DNA of 34,822 nt from the NCBI GenBank assembly GCA_029233985.1, contig JARGOK010000001.1, forward strand, positions 374,274 through 409,095, given 5' to 3'. This DNA is from Candidatus Altimarinota bacterium (GTDB lineage: Bacteria; Patescibacteriota; Gracilibacteria; JAUYGZ01). Of this stretch, positions 14,860-26,077 are shown in pieces (positions within the stretch are counted from its first letter, which is position 1; the number at the start of each line of letters is the position of its first letter). Below the pieces are notes generated by a model. It made no database searches. It saw nothing but the letters and a program-made list of their open reading frames with translations, and had not been told where the DNA came from. The translations under genes and the position numbers were made by a program.

Positions 14860-15465
14860 AAAACTTCTTGTAAGGGGTTTTCACTGGCCGGAGGATTTCA
14901 TAGGTCCAAAGAGCCAAAAAGATAAAAATAAAAACAAAAACAAGTCTGGGGCGCGTTCGTCTCAGCACCCAGCCTCCCTAGTGAGGCTGGGTTTACCCCT
15001 TCGGGGGTGAGGATAGATCTTTGACACCAGCGAAGGCAAAAGGATGGGAAAGCGAGCATGGTGATCCGTCATCTACTAGCTTCTTGTCAACAAACATTCC
15101 AAATACTCACTGTGTAGGGATCTCGAGGGATTCGACCAACGAGTGAAAAATCTTTTCTTTTTGGACATGTAAGCTTACTTCTTTCCCAATCTTTTGCTTT
15201 TGCGAGCGATTCAAAAGCCTCGTTTCACGAGGATTTGACCCTTTTGAGTCCAAACAACCTAATGGCCTTACTCTCGGGCGTTTGTAATGAACAATCTTGG
15301 GTGGGCAACGGTCAGGGTAAGACCTAAACTACCTGAGTGAAATGCAAACAAAAACAAAAACAAAGAGCTGGTCCCTTTGTACTAAACAAACAAATCTACG
15401 GTTACTGTACTTTACCTTAGCCGACACTAGATTTTCTGTCCCCGCAGCAATGCGGGGCTTTTTTT
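14860..15465 (+). ncRNA. candidate structured non-coding RNA of about 600 nt, family not identified
   Basis: A plausible promoter, strong stems and a perfect intrinsic terminator bound a stretch with no protein frame. Stem A: CCCAGCCTC/GAGGCTGGG, 9 bp (14968-14991). Stem B: ACCCC-TTCG-GGGGT, a UUCG tetraloop (14995-15008). Stem C: a 10-bp helix GATTCAAAAG/CTTTTGAGTC (15208-15250) enclosing hairpin CCTCG/CGAGG and an 8-nt bulge. Stem D: a possible pseudoknot GGTC/GACC with AGG/CCT (about 15310-15334). The A-rich tracts near 14926-14944 and 15346-15364 are near-identical. The terminator proves nothing about gyrA readthrough, since gyrA ends 930 bases before it. I looked for tmRNA, RNase P, SRP and 6S hallmarks and found no complete match. 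Exact ends are inferred. Confidence 0.45.
15440..15465 (+). terminator. strong intrinsic terminator
   Basis: CCCCGCA and TGCGGGG form a 7-bp GC-rich stem closed by a GCAA tetraloop (GNRA type), followed by C and seven T on the plus strand. No plus-strand protein gene lies immediately before it, so it most likely ends the non-coding transcript. Confidence 0.85.
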
Positions 15466-15579: not shown

Positions 15580-15693
15580 GGCGAGAATCGAATTTCTCAC
15601 CGGTGTGGCTCACCACCCGAAATATTCATTACAGGCGGTGAACTAAATTCTCTTCAGGAGATATGAACCAACCGGAGCCACTAAGGTGTTCAC
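15580..15693. repeat. multi-stem structured segment at the 3' end of the VirB6-like gene
   Basis: The hairpin GGCGAGAA/TTCTCACC (15580-15601) has one mismatch. Further pairings are GTGGCTC (15605-15611) with GAGCCAC (15675-15681), and GTGAAC (15638-15643) with GTTCAC (15688-15693). The last arm overlaps the stop codon of the minus-strand gene. This may be a 3'-end structure of that transcript. No T-tract follows. Confidence 0.45.
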
Positions 15694-17996
15694 TTCATAT
15701 TCTTTACATTTTGAGGTTCGTCCTCTGGCTTATCTATATACCCCGCACTAAAGATTTCTTTTACATTTTGAATCGAATCGGGATCATTCGCCAGCCTTGT
15801 CAGACCAGTTTGAAGACTATTTGAACCTGTGTCCCTCATAAAAGTTTCTCGGAGTGGCTTTGATTTATTCATTGCATCTTTCAATTTTGGCCCTATATCA
15901 CGAAGAAATGCTTTTCTATCTCGAAGAGAAATTGAACTATCTGTCATTATATCAGTAACATTTTCGACGGAGATATTATTCGAACTAATTTTTGTTTGCT
16001 TCTCACGTAATCCAAGTTTTTCACTGATTTTCGTTCCATATATACTCCTTCCGTCTTCACTTATATTATCTTTGGCGCCAGTTATATCGATGCTCCCGTC
16101 TCCTAGTTTCACTCCTGCGTGATCTAAGTAACTCTCCCTAGCTCTTCCAGCACCACCTGAAGACGCCGCCTTTGCAACCCGATCACTAAGGTTTTGTATA
16201 TCTGCAGCTGTTCCATTATCTAGGATTGTATTTATTTCTGTTTCATTCAATCCAATTGCTCGTGCGAAGTTATTTCTGTTCCCATCATTGGATTGCTTCA
16301 TAAACTCTTGGAGCTTGCCCTTTTTGTCTTGATAGGTGAGCGTAGAATTTGAAGTGAGTGCATTGACCTCCGAAGCAATTTTAGATCCGGTTAGGTTTTC
16401 TGTTCCTGATTTCTTTACGAGATCATCAAATTTACTGAGAACAGATTGAACATTTCCTCCAAAGGTTTTTTGAAAGAACGATTCGTCACTCTTTTGTCGG
16501 TTTCTCTCCAGCATTTGCTGTGCTGCCTTACCTGTGTACGCCAAAGTGCTGAGGCTCACATTTCCACTAGAAACTGGTATCCACGGCACATAGAGTGGTG
16601 TTTTAGCAATTTTCACTCCGGCATTCTTCACATATTCGGACATACTCGTAACGAATTCACTTCCTACAACTCCTTCTGAAGCAGCCAGGACTCCTAACCA
16701 AACGACAGCAACACTAGCGGCACCATACATAATGGATCCCACACTTCCTCCACGAGTGAGTTCTCCACTGGAGAGATTGATCAATTTGTCTTGGAAGATA
16801 GGATCATTCGTATCGATACTCAGAGCCATTTGTGACAGCATAATGTATCCAAAAGAAAGTGGGACTGCCATCTTTGCAGGTACGAAAGCCTGGTCTATGA
16901 AGGTCTTGATATTGAGTTTGTCAGGCAAAATATCTGGAAAGACGATGGTCAGCGCTGCCAATGGAGACAGCATGATACAAAGCCAGAGCACCACCACGCG
17001 CGCCAAGAGAACAACGAACATGGCGATATAAGCCATTCCATAGATCACAGCAAAGATGACTGAAAAGATTGCTGTCGTCGCCAGTCCACTAAATTTATTT
17101 TCAACGAGCTTTGCGACTTGATTCAGGTTCTGAAGTCCTTGAAACTGTGTGGCCATAGCCCAGACGAATCCTTTGTGAGTGAAATTATTGGCACCGAGGG
17201 TGATGATCCCTTGACCATTTGCATCAGGACCATTTGGCAAATCTGGTGTTGGATTAAATGGTTCTGCATAACAAACCCCTCCGAGAGACGTACTCACTCC
17301 ATCTTTATTGGTATTGTTTCCACCTTCAGCTGCTTTTGCCGCTTTTGCAGCAGTACTATCTAGACACTTGTATTTCCGATACAGCTTTATCGGCTCTCCG
17401 CCTGCTGCAGTAAAGTCACTGAGATTGGTCACACTTTGTGGGATCGAAAAAATCGCCGTCGTCAGGACATTATTTACATCCAGTACCACTCGACAAGCAA
17501 GGAAAGTGAAGTTTACGGCAATCAATGCAAGAGCCATTTTTGGAATAAATTTTTTGAGACCGTAATTCCCTGACTCATCTCCGTAGCCCACCACACTCAT
17601 CAGTGCGACAACTACGAGAGCCAGCGCGAAGAAAATATTTACGAAGTTTCTCACAATGATCCAGACCGATTGGAGTTTCTCTCCCATTCCTCCATCAAAG
17701 ATAAAGGTATTATCCATTAGCTCACCTATCCAATTGAGAGCCATGTACACAAAAATCCCAAGGAACTTGATAGCGATAGTTGCTATTTCTGCCATTCCCT
17801 TTCCGACTGCAGAACCGAGAATAGAAAAAATATCTTCAGTGTCTTCTGCTGCGAATGCGGATGGAACGACATCAAAACTCTCCGTGCTGAGTACTCCCAG
17901 CCCCACCAAAACCAGCATCGCACAAGCCAGTGTCACCGCGGCTCGACCGATGGGTCTTTTGAAGAAATGGAGAACTGAGAATGCAAAGTGTTTCAT
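15690..17996 (-). CDS. VirB6/TrbL-like polytopic membrane protein
   Basis: A 768-residue protein with a signal-like N-terminus (hydrophobic core followed by VPSAFAAED) and several long hydrophobic segments. Examples are AEIATIAIKFLGIFVYMALN, FVNIFFALALVVVALMSVV, FIPKMALALIAVNFTFLACR, the strong block FVVLLARVVVLWLCIMLSPL, and AASVAVVWLGVLAASEGVV. The C-terminal 270 residues are hydrophilic (Lys/Asp/Ser-rich). The topology and the RVVVLWLxxMLSPLA block resemble the VirB6/TrbL family of type IV secretion inner-membrane channels. The ATG at 17996 is preferred because the 40 residues before it overlap the upstream gene. It is the last gene of a four-gene operon, 47 bases after the Lys/Arg-rich gene. 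No VirB4 ATPase is in the window. Confidence 0.75.
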   Translation of the reverse strand: MKHFAFSVLHFFKRPIGRAAVTLACAMLVLVGLGVLSTESFDVVPSAFAAEDTEDIFSILGSAVGKGMAEIATIAIKFLGIFVYMALNWIGELMDNTFIFDGGMGEKLQSVWIIVRNFVNIFFALALVVVALMSVVGYGDESGNYGLKKFIPKMALALIAVNFTFLACRVVLDVNNVLTTAIFSIPQSVTNLSDFTAAGGEPIKLYRKYKCLDSTAAKAAKAAEGGNNTNKDGVSTSLGGVCYAEPFNPTPDLPNGPDANGQGIITLGANNFTHKGFVWAMATQFQGLQNLNQVAKLVENKFSGLATTAIFSVIFAVIYGMAYIAMFVVLLARVVVLWLCIMLSPLAALTIVFPDILPDKLNIKTFIDQAFVPAKMAVPLSFGYIMLSQMALSIDTNDPIFQDKLINLSSGELTRGGSVGSIMYGAASVAVVWLGVLAASEGVVGSEFVTSMSEYVKNAGVKIAKTPLYVPWIPVSSGNVSLSTLAYTGKAAQQMLERNRQKSDESFFQKTFGGNVQSVLSKFDDLVKKSGTENLTGSKIASEVNALTSNSTLTYQDKKGKLQEFMKQSNDGNRNNFARAIGLNETEINTILDNGTAADIQNLSDRVAKAASSGGAGRARESYLDHAGVKLGDGSIDITGAKDNISEDGRSIYGTKISEKLGLREKQTKISSNNISVENVTDIMTDSSISLRDRKAFLRDIGPKLKDAMNKSKPLRETFMRDTGSNSLQTGLTRLANDPDSIQNVKEIFSAGYIDKPEDEPQNVKNMK

Positions 17997-18043
17997 GGGA
18001 TGAAGTAAGAAATTTTTATTTTGAATGAATTTGAATGAATTGC

Positions 18044-18607
18044 CTAGTTGCCAAAGAGAATTCTTTTGATAAGGCCTTTTCCAAGATCGTAACCTGCATA
18101 TCCTGGGATCTGCCATTGAGCCACTCTTTTAAAGGCAGATTCTTTAATGGTTTTTTTTGCAATGCTGTCTTTCTTTTTTGCAAGACTGGCTTTTCTTTCT
18201 TGTGCTTGTTTTGCCTTGGAGGCTTCTTGTGCACGGCGTTGCATTTCTGCTTTTTCTTTCTGTTTGTTTTGGTCATCTATGGTCATACCAGCCCTCACTA
18301 CCTCTCCTCCGATCATGCTTCCATCAGTGATGTTTTTTGTGTCCACTGCAGTCTTGTCTATTGCTGCATCTCTTCTTGCATGAGCTTCTCTCTCTAGCAT
18401 TGGGAGTACTTTTTCTCCAAACTCTTGTGTCAGTGCTACTCCGAGAACTCCGGCACGTGCTTTCTTCAAATTTATTTTTTCGTTTAATTGCTGAAGCTTT
18501 CGTTTCTTTTTTTGCTTTCGGCTCAGCTTCTTTTTTGGGTTCGATATTTTTTTTGCCCCCAGCTGGTTTTCAATCAGGTTTCGGTTTGTTCTGTTTTTCT
18601 CTTCCAT
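18044..18607 (-). CDS. Lys/Arg-rich hypothetical protein of the VirB6-like operon
   Basis: A 187-residue soluble, strongly basic protein. Residues 20-50 are a run of Lys/Arg (KKKLSRKQKKKRKL), and residues 110-160 form an Ala/Lys/Gln/Glu-rich helix likely to be a coiled coil (MQRRAQEASKAKQAQERK). The C-terminus is more hydrophobic (QIPGYAGYDLGKGLIKRIL) and might touch a membrane. No known domain is recognised. It begins 5 bases after the stop of the 1008-residue gene, so the two are cotranscribed and probably translationally coupled. It may bind nucleic acid or an acidic partner, but that is only suggested by charge. Confidence 0.7.
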   Translation of the reverse strand: MEEKNRTNRNLIENQLGAKKISNPKKKLSRKQKKKRKLQQLNEKINLKKARAGVLGVALTQEFGEKVLPMLEREAHARRDAAIDKTAVDTKNITDGSMIGGEVVRAGMTIDDQNKQKEKAEMQRRAQEASKAKQAQERKASLAKKKDSIAKKTIKESAFKRVAQWQIPGYAGYDLGKGLIKRILFGN

Positions 18608-18612
18608 GTTTT

Positions 18613-21600
18613 TTATGAAGCAATTGTATTAGAGCGAGAGAAATATGTTTCCCCCTGGGTTTTCTGTAACCATTTTTTTTGTTTTTTCCACATGTCCATC
18701 ATTTTCTTGCCAGGCTGTATTTTTGTTTTAGACCTCATGGCTTTTTGTTTTGGTGGATTTTCTTTATGAAGATGCATCATGCTCATTGTCCCTTGCATGA
18801 GCAATCTTGCCTTTATGAGGTACCGTTTTCTTTCAAGAGTATTTCTTTTTACGGTGGATTCTTCTAGTGGTTTTTTATTTTTGTCCACAAGAGGAAACCT
18901 TTCATCCATGTTCTTGTAAATGGAAAGCTCCATCCCTTCTTTCAGAGTCGATTTTTTCACCCAATTCTTGAGAGATTCTTCTGTGAGATTTTTTTCTATT
19001 TTCTGGTCGATAAATGCATCAACTGTGAGCGCTTCTCCATCTACCACCTGCTTTCCCATTTCAGATATGAGTCGGTCACTTTGAAGAGAGATCGATTTTG
19101 CAATCTGATTACGATCCATATATCTCATCGGATGCTTGTCTCCAGCTGTGAGCCCATTCCAAAATTTCCCAATGAATTCTGGAGTCATAGAACTGATACC
19201 TTCATCACTTTTTCTCACTCCAAATACTTGTTGAGCCATGACTTGAGTCGGATCAACAAACCAGCTCTTCACCCACTCCAATCCTTCTAGATTTTTATTC
19301 AAGACTCCACTTACATCAGGAGCCTTGCCTCTGTCTGCATAGAGTTGCATGGCGCGATAGGTGTCTACTGTATTACTAAAGTCTACATTTTGAAGAGCAC
19401 CAATATCATCAGCATCAGTAAAGAATCCCATATCTCGCAAGACTTCTATTGGCAGTTCATAATCTTCATCAGCATCCTCTGGTAAATAATGGAGAAGGAA
19501 ACTGTTGTATTTTTCGTAGCTGACGGTGAGTGATTTTGCAGATGAAAAGCCTCTTTCTTCGAGTGCTTTTTCCGTTGCGAGAACAGATTGCTGATGTTCT
19601 TTCACTTCATCGATTTTAATATCCCAAGAATCGAGAAAGTCTCTAACTTGTGGCGTTGTCTTCGCAACAAAATCCCCTGGTTTTTTCCAGAGCCATTCGT
19701 AGATCATCCCTTTGGTGTTTTTCATGTATTCCTTCCCTGCAATTTTTTCTGCACTTCCGTGGGTGAAATCTTTTATTTGTTCAAGTAATCCAGCGACTGG
19801 CCCCATCCCAGCTACTTCTCTCCCGCCAAAAGCGAGAGCACTAGTGACCTTTTTTCTCAATTCAGGTGAAGAAGATAGTGCCGCCATTCCCCCGCCGAGA
19901 ACAATTGCTGAGACAGCGGAATATTCTGTAAAGGTCCACTTTAAAGTATCTGTCACCACTCCATATGGAACAGTAAAGGCAGCCTTTGCGAGCTTTCCAG
20001 CTAGTGAAGGCCACTTGAATGGATTAACTGTCAGATGCTGAATGATTTTCTTGTGAAACTGCATGTAAATATTTTTCCCAAGTGGGAAGGTGTTTGCAGC
20101 GATAGAGGAAAGACCCATAAAGAGAATCGGCGCTTTTACCAAAAGACTACTCGCATCCATATTTCGAAAACTCGGCATCATATCGAGTCCCTTTGTAATA
20201 AAATCAAAAGTAACTCCCTTTGGCGGCAAGGTTTGTTCTCGAAGTGCAAGCTCGTAGTCTTCATGAAAGTCTTCTGCTAGGCGTGCTTCAGCTCTGAGTA
20301 CTGAAGCCTTTTCATCCATCTCTTGTGCTTCTATTTCATGCCCCTGAACTCTTGCTTTTTGCCCCTCCAACTCTACCTCTCGAGCTTCTCCTCTTTTTTC
20401 TTGTACAACATCTTTCATTTCTTCGATTAATTTTACTTGTCTATCTGAGTTCGTATCCGACTTGCTCTCTCGGTATTCTTTGAGTTCGGATTCAGATTCC
20501 TGAACGGCTTCTTTGAGAGCTGGAATATTTTTTGTGTCGTTTTCACTCCCTGCTTTTTCAAGAGCTTTCCGACGTGCCTCCAAAGTTGTTACCAGTTTTT
20601 TCTCGTGATCCGTTTGGTTGCTGAGGATACGATTTTGAAACAGCACATTCATAACAGCTGTTTGGTTTTTTGTGCAGAATTTCAAATAGTCTTCTTCTTC
20701 TTTTGGGGCCAGATGGAGAAGGTCTTGAGATTCGAGAAATTGCCGGTAAATAAATTTTGTTTTCTTGGAAAAAGACGTCATGAGTTTTACTCGAAGTGCA
20801 TCTTGCTGTTTATCTTTTCCAAGCTCAATACTGAAGTCGAGTTGATCGAGTTCTTTTTGCGTTAGTGAAGAGGCCGTATTTTTCTTGGTGATTTTCTGGA
20901 GCTCAATTTCAATGAAGAGATTGAAAGCTTGCTCTTGTTTTTTTTCTGTAATCTCTTCTTTTGCTTTCCTCAAAGCATCGAGATCTTCTTTGTATTTTTT
21001 TAGTGTCTCTCCTTCGTAGAGTTCGGCATAGAGTTCTTGAATGAGTTGTGTGTCATCCTTCATATCGAGCTCTGCGATTTTTTCCGTCATCAGTCGAACG
21101 GCTTTTTTGAAAGGTTCTTTGTCGGTATTATTTACTCTTTCTTTAATGCTATTAATAATTTCAGACTTCACTACATCTCGAACCGCAGATACTTGTTTAT
21201 TTTCATGAATAAATAATCGCCTAAGAATTCTCTTTCGTCGGTCACTAATTCTTCCAGAGACATCCTTGGTTTTTTTTAGATGAGCCACTTTCTCTTTTTG
21301 AAGCTCGATTGCTCTTTTGAGATCATCAGTTGGTTCGCCATCATACTGCGCTTTAAGATTAGAAAGTCTATTCATTACGCCAGCCTCCATGCTTCTTTGA
21401 AGAGCGGTAAACTCTTGGCGAGTATCGAGCTTTGTGTTTTTTAATTCGAAAACGAGTTGGTTTTCATATATGATTTTCAACTTGCTCAATTTATTCTCTG
21501 GGGATTCTTTGGAGCTTTTAATCGCCTCTAAAGCCCCAACCAAATGCTGGTGTTGTTCATTAATCTTCTCAGTCTGTGTTTTTTCTTTAGGCTGATTTTC

Positions 21601-21639
21601 TGGAGCTCTTATCGGTATGTTTGGACCATTTACAGGCAT
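18613..21639 (-). CDS. giant coiled-coil and membrane protein of the VirB6-like operon
   Basis: A 1008-residue protein with no recognised family. Residues 1-470 are almost entirely charged helix (Lys/Glu/Gln), with strong coiled-coil character in several blocks (for example near 330-470). Two hydrophobic stretches follow, about 497-525 (LVKAPILFMGLSSIAANTF) and 548-590 (FTVPYGVV and SAVSAIVLGGGMAAL). A mixed alpha-type C-terminal region of some 400 residues then runs to a Ser-rich end. No signal peptide is visible. The start ATG overlaps the stop of the 174-residue gene by one base (TAATG), so the two are translationally coupled. I suggest a membrane-tethered scaffold for the VirB6-like protein, as inference from the operon only. 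Confidence 0.75.
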   Translation of the reverse strand: MPVNGPNIPIRAPENQPKEKTQTEKINEQHQHLVGALEAIKSSKESPENKLSKLKIIYENQLVFELKNTKLDTRQEFTALQRSMEAGVMNRLSNLKAQYDGEPTDDLKRAIELQKEKVAHLKKTKDVSGRISDRRKRILRRLFIHENKQVSAVRDVVKSEIINSIKERVNNTDKEPFKKAVRLMTEKIAELDMKDDTQLIQELYAELYEGETLKKYKEDLDALRKAKEEITEKKQEQAFNLFIEIELQKITKKNTASSLTQKELDQLDFSIELGKDKQQDALRVKLMTSFSKKTKFIYRQFLESQDLLHLAPKEEEDYLKFCTKNQTAVMNVLFQNRILSNQTDHEKKLVTTLEARRKALEKAGSENDTKNIPALKEAVQESESELKEYRESKSDTNSDRQVKLIEEMKDVVQEKRGEAREVELEGQKARVQGHEIEAQEMDEKASVLRAEARLAEDFHEDYELALREQTLPPKGVTFDFITKGLDMMPSFRNMDASSLLVKAPILFMGLSSIAANTFPLGKNIYMQFHKKIIQHLTVNPFKWPSLAGKLAKAAFTVPYGVVTDTLKWTFTEYSAVSAIVLGGGMAALSSSPELRKKVTSALAFGGREVAGMGPVAGLLEQIKDFTHGSAEKIAGKEYMKNTKGMIYEWLWKKPGDFVAKTTPQVRDFLDSWDIKIDEVKEHQQSVLATEKALEERGFSSAKSLTVSYEKYNSFLLHYLPEDADEDYELPIEVLRDMGFFTDADDIGALQNVDFSNTVDTYRAMQLYADRGKAPDVSGVLNKNLEGLEWVKSWFVDPTQVMAQQVFGVRKSDEGISSMTPEFIGKFWNGLTAGDKHPMRYMDRNQIAKSISLQSDRLISEMGKQVVDGEALTVDAFIDQKIEKNLTEESLKNWVKKSTLKEGMELSIYKNMDERFPLVDKNKKPLEESTVKRNTLERKRYLIKARLLMQGTMSMMHLHKENPPKQKAMRSKTKIQPGKKMMDMWKKQKKWLQKTQGETYFSRSNTIAS

Positions 21640-22163
21640 TAGAGACCGAGATTACGAATAAGTTGATCTGAGAAGCTTTCTTCTTTTCCTTCTTCTTCTA
21701 CAATGAAATTGACGAGGTAGGCTTTGAGCTCGGCTCGGTTCATTTCTATTGGGATAAGAATAGTGATCCTACTGGATCCTTTTGAAGTGACGAAATTGAG
21801 AGTCTTGATATCATCATTATCGATGACCCAAAAACTTTTAATATTGCCATAATTGTAGAATTTTGCCCCAAACCGTATTCCATGATCCGTTACTTCTACT
21901 TTTACAATGGGTGGCGTGGTCATTTGACTCAAGTAATAGACTCCCGCCATGAGCAGAAAGGTGATTGAAACGATCCAACCGTATTGGCCAGATGTCGACA
22001 TCATTCCATAAATGACGAATCCGAGAACTATAAGTCCCATCATGATATACCATCCAATCCCCTTTTCAGGCTGGAGGTAGGCCGGACAGACCCAATCCAT
22101 AAATATTTTATGAGGAGAGTTTGATGCAGAATTCTCTTCCGAGATGTTTTTTGTTTCTTCCAT
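21639..22163 (-). CDS. two-helix membrane protein with C-terminal soluble domain, first gene of the operon
   Basis: A 174-residue protein. A cytoplasmic N-terminus (about 1-35) leads into two adjacent membrane helices (about 38-57, YIMMGLIVLGFVIYGMM, and 62-82, YGWIVSITFLLMAGVYYL). A beta-rich domain of about 85 residues follows, with a pleckstrin-like pattern (KVEVTDHGIRFGAKFYNYG, then SRITILIPIEMN). Proteins of this build are widespread in CPR next to secretion-like genes, but I know no function. It heads the operon and has a promoter at 22187-22195. Confidence 0.75.
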   Translation of the reverse strand: MEETKNISEENSASNSPHKIFMDWVCPAYLQPEKGIGWYIMMGLIVLGFVIYGMMSTSGQYGWIVSITFLLMAGVYYLSQMTTPPIVKVEVTDHGIRFGAKFYNYGNIKSFWVIDNDDIKTLNFVTSKGSSRITILIPIEMNRAELKAYLVNFIVEEEGKEESFSDQLIRNLGL

Positions 22164-22186: not shown

Positions 22187-22195
22187 ATTATACCA
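22187..22195 (-). promoter_or_regulatory. extended -10 promoter of the VirB6-like operon
   Basis: On the minus strand TGGTATAAT is a consensus extended -10. Seventeen bases further upstream lies TTTAAT, a weak -35. The start would fall near 22180, leaving a leader of about 17 nt before the ATG at 22163. The gene on the plus strand begins only 29 bases beyond, so the two promoters must share this 60-base gap. Confidence 0.6.
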
Positions 22196-22223
22196 TTTTT
22201 AAGCGACTTATTAAAGGCTTATA

Positions 22224-23389: not shown

Positions 23390-26077
23390 ATGAAAAAGTC
23401 ACGAGTATGGCGAAATATGCTCCTCATCGCTGTTTTTAGTTTGTTTCTTTCGTTCGTCGTAAATCCTTATAAATTTGAACCTCTTGAAAAAGAGATTCCC
23501 ATTATTACTCCGGTGTGGAACTGGATGCAAGAGTCAAAGGTCAGTCTTGGGTTAGACCTCCAAGGAGGAACGCAGCTTGATTATGAGATAGATCTTCGGC
23601 AGGCAAGAGAGCTCAATAATGACGATGACCCAGACAATGATGTAAATATTGCAGAACTTATTGATGGAGTGAAAGAAGTCATCGAAAAACGTGTGAATAG
23701 CTTGGGTGTGTCTGAACCGAATATTTATATCTCTTCGATAGGAGATGAACAACACATCGTAGTAGAATTGGCTGGTATAAATGATATCTCTGAAGCAAAA
23801 GAGAAAGTTGGGAAAGTCGTCCAACTGGAATTCAAAACGGAAAAAGAAGAAGCTGCACAAGAAGATATTGGTCCTATAAAAGAAAAAGCTGAAGTTTTCT
23901 TGGCTAAAGTAAAAAAAGCTGGAGCTATCGAAGACCTTGAAGCTTTTGCTGAAGATGACCTCATTGCCAATAAAGTGGAATACAAAGAAGACAAAGAAAA
24001 ATACTTGGATCAACTCCCTCAAGGGATCCAAGATGTTATTGATGAATTGGTAGAAGGAGAATTTTACAATGAAGCTCTTTCTGCAAAGGATAATGACTAT
24101 GTTGTCATTGATCAAACACCCGTTCAGCCAGAAGGATTTAATATCATTCGACTTGTTGAATCGAAAAACGAACTCCGAAAACAACCAATAAATGCTGAAA
24201 ATTTTATCGAAGTTCTCGAAGAGCTTGGAGGAACATCTTCTGAGAAGTATGTCCGTGAAGATGAGATTGGTTCTGAAGACCTGACTCTTGAAATCACTAC
24301 ACTAGACCCAAATCAGATCACAGATGTCGTCAAGGACGAGAAAGGATTTACCATTGCAAAGCTCACGTCAAAACTTGAAGCAACAGAAGATGACGATGCA
24401 CAACTTCTTATTTCTCATATTTTGCTCAAAACTGAGCCTGTTGTAGAGCTGAAAATTGCCAAACCAACTGAAGAAATTCCTGAAGATGCGACTGAAGAAG
24501 AGCGACAAGTAATCGAAGCATCGAACCAACTCATTACTGAAGAAAATGAACAAACGGCTAAAGACAATGAAGAAATTGCTGCTCAAAATGCAGAAGCAGA
24601 GGCAAAGAATGAAGATATAAAAACTGATGCTGAAGCTCTTCTTGCTGAAGTAATCGCTGATCCATCAAGATTTGCAGAACTTGCTATAGAGCGTTCTGAA
24701 GATACTGGGAGTGGAGAGAAAGGTGGTGATTTAGGATATGCACTGCCTTCTGCATATGTTCCTGAATTTGCAGAAGCTGCAAAGGCACTCGAAGTAGGAG
24801 ACATCACAAAAGAACTCGTCCAAAGTCAGTTTGGATACCATATCATTCAACTGAATGACAAAAAGAAACCAGAAGAAGAACTCTTTCAATTCGCTGCTAT
24901 TACGATCTGTTATGAAGGAATTGAAGGATGTGAGAGCACTGTTACGGAAGAAGTAGCAAAATCTCAAGCTGATGAAGTCTTGAGACGTGTTCGAGAAGAA
25001 ACTATCTACACAACTGAACGAGTATGGTTTAATACCTTGCCTGATCCTTGGCAAAAAACTGAGTTGGATGCACGATACTTTAGACGAGCTGCTGTAAACT
25101 TTGACCAAACAAGTGGTCGACCTGTTGTGCAGATTGAGTTTAATGAGGAAGGAGGTGAACTCTTTGCAAAACTTACTGAAGAAAATATCAATAAACGAAT
25201 GGGAATTTTTGTTGGAGGAGAATTTATTTCTGCACCAAACATTAATGAAAAAATCACAGGAGGAAGCGCTCAAATCACTCTTGGGATTTCAAATGTACAA
25301 GTTGCTATCCAACAAGCGAATGAACTCGCTCGTAGTCTCAATGCTGGATCTATCCCCGCTCCACTGAAGAAACCAAACGAATTGAATATTGGTGCTTCTC
25401 TCGGAGACGAATCACTTCAGAAAAGCATCCAAGCTGGTATGATCGGTCTTCTGATTCTTGCGGTCTTTATGTTGCTTTACTACCGTATGCAAGGGCTTCT
25501 GGCATGTTGTTCACTCATCGTGTATGGACTATTTTTGACCTTCTTGATCCAGTCTTCTCTCCCTGCTTATTTGGCTCTCATCATTACTTTCACATTATGG
25601 ATATCGTTTGCTTTGAGCTTGTTTAGATCACGGATCGACTTATCCTCAAAGATGCTCTTCTTGTCTCTCAGTATAGTAGGAGTGTACTTTATCTTTAAAG
25701 TCCTTATAACACCGATCGTTCTAACTTTGGCAGGTATAGCTGGTCTCATCCTTTCGATTGGGATGGCCGTAGATGCCAATATCCTGATCTTTGAAAGAAT
25801 GAAGGAAGAATTTAAAACTGGTAAATCATATGTCAATTCTGTGAATGATGGATTTGAAAGAGCTTGGAGTTCTATCTTGGACTCGAATGTTTCTACTCTG
25901 ATCACTTGTGCAATCCTCTACTCTTTTGGAACAAGTATCATCCAAGGATTTTCTATCAACCTCGCAGCTGGAGTCGTGATCTCTATGTTCTCTGCCATCA
26001 CAGTTACAAAGACCTTCATGATGATCTTTGCAGGTACCAAAATAGAAAAGATCAAGTGGCTCTGGAAAAGAAAATAA
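23390..26077 (+). CDS. secD: SecD-type preprotein translocase subunit with inserted parvulin PPIase domain
   Basis: SecD pulls secreted proteins through the Sec channel. The 895-residue protein starts with a membrane helix (7-24) and the P1 beginning (LGLDLQGGTQ). A long insertion follows, with peptidyl-prolyl isomerase (PpiC/parvulin) motifs: ISHILLK (341-347), GSGEKGGDLGYALP (440-453) and FGYHIIQLND (481-490). Two degenerate modules end in GFNIIRLVESK (249-259) and GFTIAKLTSK (319-328). The P1 base resumes at about 558-660 (RPVVQIEFNEEGG, EFISAPNINEKITGGSAQI). The C-terminal helices include the SecD signature GMAVDANILIFERMKEE (791-807). About 50 extra residues with two more hydrophobic helices (about 720-775) sit before it. 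No secF follows. Most SecD proteins are much shorter. Confidence 0.88.
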   Translation: MKKSRVWRNMLLIAVFSLFLSFVVNPYKFEPLEKEIPIITPVWNWMQESKVSLGLDLQGGTQLDYEIDLRQARELNNDDDPDNDVNIAELIDGVKEVIEKRVNSLGVSEPNIYISSIGDEQHIVVELAGINDISEAKEKVGKVVQLEFKTEKEEAAQEDIGPIKEKAEVFLAKVKKAGAIEDLEAFAEDDLIANKVEYKEDKEKYLDQLPQGIQDVIDELVEGEFYNEALSAKDNDYVVIDQTPVQPEGFNIIRLVESKNELRKQPINAENFIEVLEELGGTSSEKYVREDEIGSEDLTLEITTLDPNQITDVVKDEKGFTIAKLTSKLEATEDDDAQLLISHILLKTEPVVELKIAKPTEEIPEDATEEERQVIEASNQLITEENEQTAKDNEEIAAQNAEAEAKNEDIKTDAEALLAEVIADPSRFAELAIERSEDTGSGEKGGDLGYALPSAYVPEFAEAAKALEVGDITKELVQSQFGYHIIQLNDKKKPEEELFQFAAITICYEGIEGCESTVTEEVAKSQADEVLRRVREETIYTTERVWFNTLPDPWQKTELDARYFRRAAVNFDQTSGRPVVQIEFNEEGGELFAKLTEENINKRMGIFVGGEFISAPNINEKITGGSAQITLGISNVQVAIQQANELARSLNAGSIPAPLKKPNELNIGASLGDESLQKSIQAGMIGLLILAVFMLLYYRMQGLLACCSLIVYGLFLTFLIQSSLPAYLALIITFTLWISFALSLFRSRIDLSSKMLFLSLSIVGVYFIFKVLITPIVLTLAGIAGLILSIGMAVDANILIFERMKEEFKTGKSYVNSVNDGFERAWSSILDSNVSTLITCAILYSFGTSIIQGFSINLAAGVVISMFSAITVTKTFMMIFAGTKIEKIKWLWKRK

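What the first reader, a model, noticed from the sequence alone, without database searches (positions are those of the whole stretch)
15690..22163. Four-gene operon around a VirB6/TrbL-like channel with giant coiled-coil partner and no visible ATPase
The order is 174-aa membrane protein, 1008-aa coiled-coil/membrane protein, 187-aa Lys/Arg-rich protein and VirB6/TrbL-like protein. Tight coupling (one-base TAATG overlap, then 5 and 47 bases) and one extended -10 promoter show that the four are one unit. Only the last has a recognisable family. The large coiled-coil protein and the basic one have no known relatives that I can name. A VirB6-like pore without VirB4/VirD4 or pilin genes next door suggests either a split secretion machine or a separate cell-envelope assembly. 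For a host-attached CPR cell, a surface complex for uptake or contact would be plausible, but that is inference.
Basis: partly seen in the sequence, partly recalled or inferred. Interest (0 to 1): 0.72.

Follow-up and report, generated by a model that had tools for sequence, protein, structure and literature searches.

The report
Split type IV secretion membrane module
The four genes are the VirB6 channel gene and three partners of the type IV secretion machine found across these tiny bacteria; its motors and other parts are encoded elsewhere in the same genome, and two of the partners keep their place next to the channel gene while their sequences change almost beyond recognition.

Summary
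The four minus-strand genes are real, tightly packed and conserved as a block: in 25 of 32 class relatives with both end genes on one contig, the small membrane gene lies just upstream of the VirB6-like gene on the same strand, nearly always with one to three genes between. The last gene is VirB6: its profile joins that of proteins beside PrgI-TrsD-VirB4 in other classes (hhalign E 2e-30); that second profile finds R388 VirB6 (TrwI) as top solved structure (E 0.002), and 7 of 14 members hit Pfam TrbL. One same-class genome still has VirB6-PrgI-TrsD-VirB4 in one run. The window's genome encodes VirB4, PrgI, TrsD, a VirD4-type ATPase and pilins elsewhere, so the machine is split, not ATPase-less. 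The 174-aa protein (two membrane helices plus probable PH-like DUF5673 domain) occurs in 104 of 127 sampled Patescibacteria, often near PrgI. The 1008-aa and 187-aa proteins match no family; their counterparts share position and layout but almost no sequence. A 2025 survey reported VirB6 as absent in Gracilibacteria; this appears to be that missing VirB6. Substrate, and the role of the two fast-changing partners, are unknown.

The parts
21639..22163 (-). 174-aa DUF5673-type membrane protein: N-terminal two-helix hairpin, C-terminal probable PH-like domain; first gene of the block
   Evidence: Pfam DUF5673 24 bits (sub-threshold); found in 47 of 60 class relatives; profile A2 in 104 of 127 Patescibacteria; low-confidence model with 2 TM helices, 6 strands and C-terminal helices
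18613..21639 (-). 1008-aa charged, probably mostly helical protein with weakly hydrophobic segments at about residues 497-515 and 570-588; second gene; fast-diverging partner
   Evidence: no Pfam/NCBIfam family; no reliable sequence relative in 60 class genomes; positional equivalents; residues 678-751 align with the G001 counterpart, 31% identity, hhalign single-pair E 0.009
18044..18607 (-). 187-aa Lys/Arg-rich protein (net charge about +24), third gene
   Evidence: composition; counterparts with basic body and hydrophobic C-terminal tail; VirB6 of G001 (L038) carries a basic N-terminal extension of similar length
15690..17996 (-). 768-aa VirB6 (TrbL/VirB6-type polytopic membrane protein), fourth gene
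22187..22214 (-). extended -10 promoter-like site in the divergent intergenic region, upstream of the block
   Evidence: 10 of 12 matches with TG before the -10; sequence
15360..15380 (-). terminator-like hairpin with T run about 310 bases after the VirB6 stop

Best explanation
The block encodes the cytoplasmic-membrane part of the Patescibacteria type IV secretion system (T4SS), separated in this lineage from the rest of the machine. VirB6 forms the membrane channel base. The DUF5673-type protein (two membrane helices plus a probable cytoplasmic PH-like domain) is an accessory membrane subunit. The 1008-aa and 187-aa proteins are lineage-specific accessory subunits, most likely on the cytoplasmic face and held at the membrane by semi-hydrophobic segments and a C-terminal tail. 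Energy comes from VirB4 (G000:C3:162099-164420) and a VirD4-type ATPase (C5:598952-601489); PrgI and TrsD (C5:535175-537275) and two VirB2-type pilins (C3:168516-169369) complete the set. Shown: gene identity by profile and synteny, the conserved block, presence of the other parts. Inferred: physical assembly, placement of the two fast-changing proteins, and the substrate (DNA or protein, export or import).
For: Synteny: the DUF5673 gene lies just upstream of VirB6 on the same strand in 25 of 32 class relatives with both on one contig (positions; structure). VirB6 identity: class profile A1 against other-class profile A7, hhalign E 2.2e-30 over 264 columns; A7 finds TrwI, the R388 VirB6 (7o3v), as top solved structure, E 0.0021, next 0.33; 7 of 14 A7 members match Pfam TrbL/VirB6, best 2.8e-7. 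T4SS linkage: other-class homologues lie just upstream of PrgI with TrsD-like and VirB4 genes following (L117, L122, L124, L125, L126, L128, L129) and, among listed matches, within 10 kb of PrgI in 37 of 44 genomes with both on one contig; a same-class genome keeps VirB6-PrgI-TrsD-VirB4 together (L130). In one family the VirD4-type ATPase gene adjoins the block (L045, L046, L055). The DUF5673-type gene sits in the PrgI-TrsD-pilin operon in TGA-recoding relatives (L111-L115). Own-genome parts: VirB4 over its NCBIfam cut-off and TrsD E 3e-12, PrgI and coupling ATPase over Pfam cut-offs, one pilin over cut-off. VirB4 in 58 of 60 and PrgI in 51 of 60 relatives.
Against: No biochemical or expression data. 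The link to TrwI rests on a profile built from other classes and a modest E-value; the window protein alone has no Pfam hit. The VirB6 model has pLDDT 37 and says nothing about the fold. The membrane roles of the 1008-aa and 187-aa proteins rest on borderline hydrophobicity. In seven relatives the DUF5673 and VirB6 genes share a contig but are not adjacent, so adjacency is not obligatory.
Confidence: 0.86

Rival explanations
1. The block is a separate cell-envelope assembly that borrowed a VirB6-like pore and works without the T4SS ATPases.
For: VirB4 is about 210 kb away on the same contig, and PrgI, TrsD and the coupling ATPase are on another contig.
Against: The only gene of this VirB6 family found in this genome is this one; the complete remaining set is present; homologues of the same gene are beside PrgI-TrsD-VirB4 in other classes and in one same-class genome.
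Confidence: 0.06
2. The 1008-aa and 187-aa proteins are not structural but substrates of the machine (effectors delivered to the host, or an effector with its partner), which would explain their fast change.
For: Positional conservation with almost no sequence conservation, clusters only within families; the genes are packed inside the block.
Against: They sit between two structural genes in nearly all blocks, share a layout (semi-hydrophobic segments at a similar place; basic body with hydrophobic tail), have no recognisable enzymatic or toxin domain, and in G001 a comparable basic segment is fused to VirB6 itself.
Confidence: 0.12
3. The system is a conjugation machine moving a plasmid or integrative element.
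For: Its VirB4 matches a conjugal-transfer model (NF045971) over cut-off, and a coupling ATPase is present.
Against: No relaxase of family PF03432 in the genome (other relaxase families not searched); parts are scattered and shared class-wide, unlike a mobile element; the published survey finds relaxases in few Patescibacteria (PMC12102498).
Confidence: 0.05

Closest known systems
Patescibacteria T4SS of the MPF-FATA lineage (Quinonero-Coronel et al. 2025, PMC12102498)
   Same: VirB4, PrgI/VirB3, TrsD, VirB2-type pilins and a VirD4-type ATPase are all present in this genome; VirB6 homologues of other classes are near virB4, as that survey reports.
   Different: That survey found VirB6 scarce in Microgenomatia and absent in Gracilibacteria and looked mainly near virB4. 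Here VirB6 is far from virB4, in a block with a DUF5673-type protein (term not found in the paper's main text) and two fast-changing proteins.
TrwI, the VirB6 of plasmid R388 (PDB 7o3v)
   Same: Detected as top solved structure by the other-class VirB6 profile over about 200 positions; that profile in turn matches the window family.
   Different: 342 aa against 768 aa; the window family has a large hydrophilic insert and a long C-terminal region, and no VirB7/9/10-type outer-membrane partners were seen in the block.
PrgI/VirB3 (PF12666, PF05101)
   Same: The DUF5673-type protein also has two N-terminal membrane helices and a small C-terminal domain, and 3 of 15 members show weak VirB3 hits.
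   Different: A true PrgI is encoded separately in the same genome, so the DUF5673-type protein is an additional component, not the VirB3.

Membership tests
TrbL/VirB6 | sequence-profile relationship to known VirB6/TrbL | tested here: met
   Indirect: A1 to A7 E 2.2e-30; A7 to TrwI E 0.0021; 7 of 14 A7 members hit PF04610, best 2.8e-7. Direct Pfam scan of the window protein: no hit.
TrbL/VirB6 | polytopic membrane protein with several membrane helices | tested here: met
   Full-length homologues have about 7-10 hydropathy-predicted helices; conserved hydrophobic blocks in alignment A1
TrbL/VirB6 | VirB6 fold | tested here: inconclusive
   AlphaFold model from three sequences, mean pLDDT 36.7; no fold search run on it
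TrbL/VirB6 | genetic linkage to T4SS genes | tested here: met
   Not in the window itself, but in homologues:
Patescibacteria MPF-FATA T4SS | VirB4 ATPase in the genome | tested here: met
   C3:162099-164420, NF045971 363.8 bits over cut-off 325
Patescibacteria MPF-FATA T4SS | PrgI and TrsD | tested here: met
   Adjacent genes at C5:535175-536482 and 536523-537275; the TrsD match (46.7 bits, E 3e-12) is below its curated cut-off of 200
Patescibacteria MPF-FATA T4SS | VirB2-type pilins | tested here: met
   C3:168516-168938 and 168941-169369, the second over the PF18895 cut-off
Patescibacteria MPF-FATA T4SS | coupling ATPase (T4CP) | tested here: met
   C5:598952-601489, PF10412 52.4 bits over cut-off
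Conjugation system | relaxase | tested here: not met
   PF03432 absent from the own genome; other relaxase families not searched
DUF5673 (PF18923) | score over the curated cut-off | tested here: inconclusive
   24.0 bits against 26.7; 7 of 15 class members show hits at E up to 0.1
PrgI/VirB3 | 174-aa protein matches PrgI or VirB3 | tested here: not met
   No hit for the window protein at E up to 1; only weak VirB3 hits in 3 of 15 relatives; the real PrgI is elsewhere
Coiled-coil protein (1008 aa) | heptad periodicity above composition | tested here: not met
   57 of 300 shuffles reach the observed score for residues 1-490; crude score, no dedicated predictor available

The most novel reading that the evidence does not exclude
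The T4SS of this class carries a cytoplasmic module made of a large helical protein and a basic partner that hold a fixed place beside VirB6 but change so fast that they are unrecognisable between families: a substrate- or host-specific docking platform adapted to each epibiont's partner. The DUF5673-type protein would be a phylum-wide, previously unassigned T4SS subunit.
Probability: 0.35. Interest if true: 0.7.

Novelty: new variant of a known kind. Interest (0 to 1): 0.52.

Why it matters
The T4SS is reported essential for epibiotic growth in the one Patescibacterium tested, and its role is unknown (PMC12102498, PMC11665869). A published survey could not find VirB6 in Gracilibacteria and attributed this to extreme divergence. 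The block supplies that VirB6 class-wide, shows that the machine is present but dispersed, and names three further candidate subunits: one found across the phylum and two that are very fast-changing. That makes the composition of this machine testable in cultured relatives.

Tried and rejected
Direct Pfam and NCBIfam scans of the four window proteins gave only DUF5673 below cut-off. Single-sequence search with the 1008-aa protein found nothing reliable (one hit of 30% identity in a frame with three TGA, E 6e-4, not followed up). The Foldseek search with the DUF5673-type model gave a list with many PH, FERM and PTB domains but no significant match, so PH-like is a lead only. All-against-all comparison of the middle genes gave only within-family clusters; hhalign gave weak agreement at the hairpin region (best f10-f8 E 3e-4), which supports but does not prove a common origin. 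The idea that the DUF5673-type protein is the VirB3 was dropped because a true PrgI is encoded elsewhere. Caution on counts: the 25 of 32 figure was tallied by hand from tool positions, plus G046, seen only with the iterated profile, and families are unevenly represented; the PrgI distance counts use only the matches listed in the output.
Full report
What was checked. The four minus-strand ORFs exist at the stated places with the stated spacing: 174 aa (21639-22163), 1008 aa (18613-21639), 187 aa (18044-18607) and 768 aa (15690-17996). The promoter is the best promoter-like site of the region, but such sites are frequent here. Downstream, gyrA (identity) converges on the block and a terminator-like hairpin follows VirB6. 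Upstream, a sugar-nucleotide transferase-like gene is divergent. The same flanking genes surround the block in the same-family genome G001 (L038; gene identities there read from protein starts, not scanned).

Conservation of the block. The window is part of a 1.66-Mb genome (G000, 96.7% complete). Several members of its class read TGA as sense, which points to Gracilibacteria in the wide sense (inference: NCBI table 25 is the SR1/Gracilibacteria code). The VirB6-like gene was found in 54 of 60 class relatives, the 174-aa family in 47 of 60 and VirB4 in 58 of 60. Where the two end genes share a contig, the DUF5673-type gene lies just upstream of VirB6 on the same strand in 25 of 32 genomes, usually with one to three genes packed between them. 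In seven genomes the two are on one contig but apart. In G013 the block becomes continuous if TGA is read as sense. In G001 a basic segment of similar length to the 187-aa protein is fused to the front of VirB6.

The middle genes. The 1008-aa and 187-aa proteins match no family, and the positional counterparts cluster by sequence only within families. Even the same-family counterpart in G001 shares only a 72-residue segment (31% identity, hhalign single-pair E 0.009). What is shared is layout. The second gene is a long charged protein with two semi-hydrophobic segments late in the chain; the best profile matches between families fall at that place (f10-f8 E 3e-4, f8-f17 0.005, f10-f19 0.008). 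The third gene is basic with a hydrophobic C-terminal tail in most families, weak in the window.

Identity of the channel gene. The class profile A1 also matches genes outside the class; 163 of 240 sampled genomes of the phylum have a match in all. Thirteen such neighbourhoods were read (L117-L129). The gene lies just upstream of PrgI (directly in L119, L122, L124, L125 and L127; with one or two genes between in L117, L126, L128 and L129), and a TrsD-like gene and VirB4 follow in L117, L122, L124, L125, L126, L128 and L129 (PrgI and TrsD-like genes there recognised from their sequence starts, VirB4 by search). Among listed matches outside the class the gene is within 10 kb of a Pfam PrgI hit in 37 of 44 genomes with both on one contig. 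Profile against profile, class and other-class sets align with E 2.2e-30 over 264 columns. The other-class profile picks TrwI, the VirB6 of R388 (7o3v), first among solved structures with E 0.0021, and 7 of its 14 members match Pfam TrbL/VirB6, best 2.8e-7. Within the class, G033 still has VirB6-PrgI-TrsD-VirB4 in one run (L130). The step from the window protein to known VirB6 is therefore indirect but consistent.

The small membrane gene. The 174-aa protein has two predicted membrane helices and a C-terminal beta-rich domain (low-confidence model, pLDDT 49). Weak DUF5673, bacterial PH and VirB3 hits occur in the family, and the non-significant Foldseek list includes many PH-type domains. Its profile finds 104 of 127 Patescibacteria. 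Outside the class it lies within 20 kb of PrgI in 27 of 49 same-contig cases, and in the TGA-recoding relatives it sits in the PrgI-TrsD-pilin operon (L111-L115; pilin identity). It is best read as a phylum-wide T4SS-associated membrane protein distinct from PrgI.

The rest of the machine in this genome. VirB4 at C3:162099-164420, two pilins about 4 kb further on, PrgI and TrsD adjacent at C5:535175-537275, and a VirD4-type ATPase at C5:598952-601489. In family f10 the homologue of that ATPase adjoins the block (L045, L046, L055). No PF03432 relaxase was found.

Comparison with what is known. The Patescibacteria T4SS was surveyed in 2025 (PMC12102498). That paper reports VirB6 as scarce in Microgenomatia and absent in Gracilibacteria, suggests extreme divergence, and notes that TrsD and PrgI are seldom near virB4 in Gracilibacteria; its main text does not mention DUF5673 (supplements not read). 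An open-access text search found no paper linking DUF5673 to secretion. A review says the T4SS of Saccharibacteria is essential in the species tested and its role unknown, with effector delivery and DNA uptake as proposals (PMC11665869).

Judgement. The machine is known; its VirB6 in this class, the dispersed arrangement, the DUF5673-type partner and the two position-fixed, fast-changing proteins are additions. Shown: gene content, synteny, profile relationships. Inferred: assembly into one complex, cytoplasmic placement of the two middle proteins, and function. Limits: mostly draft genomes, uneven sampling, low-confidence models, and no experimental data.

Noticed in passing
window 23390-26077 (+): 895-aa SecD-type protein with a PpiC/parvulin rotamase domain inserted between SecD domains (Pfam match at 396-492 inside SecD); the same-family genome G001 has an 896-aa gene at the same place (L038:3048-5738).
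   Followed up: no
L111-L114 (TGA-recoding relatives): About 0.7 kb after the DUF5673-type gene of the PrgI-TrsD-pilin operon lies a 709-742-aa gene that reads like an oligopeptide-binding protein, followed by a gene with 7-9 predicted membrane helices.
   Followed up: no
L062 (G013:C17:1-14000): Genes of the block are broken by TGA under table 11 but read through continuously with TGA as sense, giving DUF5673-744-326-411-VirB6(1016 aa).
   Followed up: partly
L110:9676-10983 (G000:C5): The own PrgI carries a very long charged, Lys-rich C-terminal extension (435 aa in all), with a 664-aa leucine-rich-repeat-like gene just upstream.
   Followed up: no
L003:1637-2749 and L004:15660-17387 (own genome): Proteins built of long near-identical tandem repeats; part of the first is masked in the data.
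   Followed up: no
L110:13259-19999 (own genome): Two large minus-strand proteins (692 aa, and at least 1546 aa running off the fetched stretch) that look made of PKD-like repeats, close to PrgI-TrsD.
   Followed up: no
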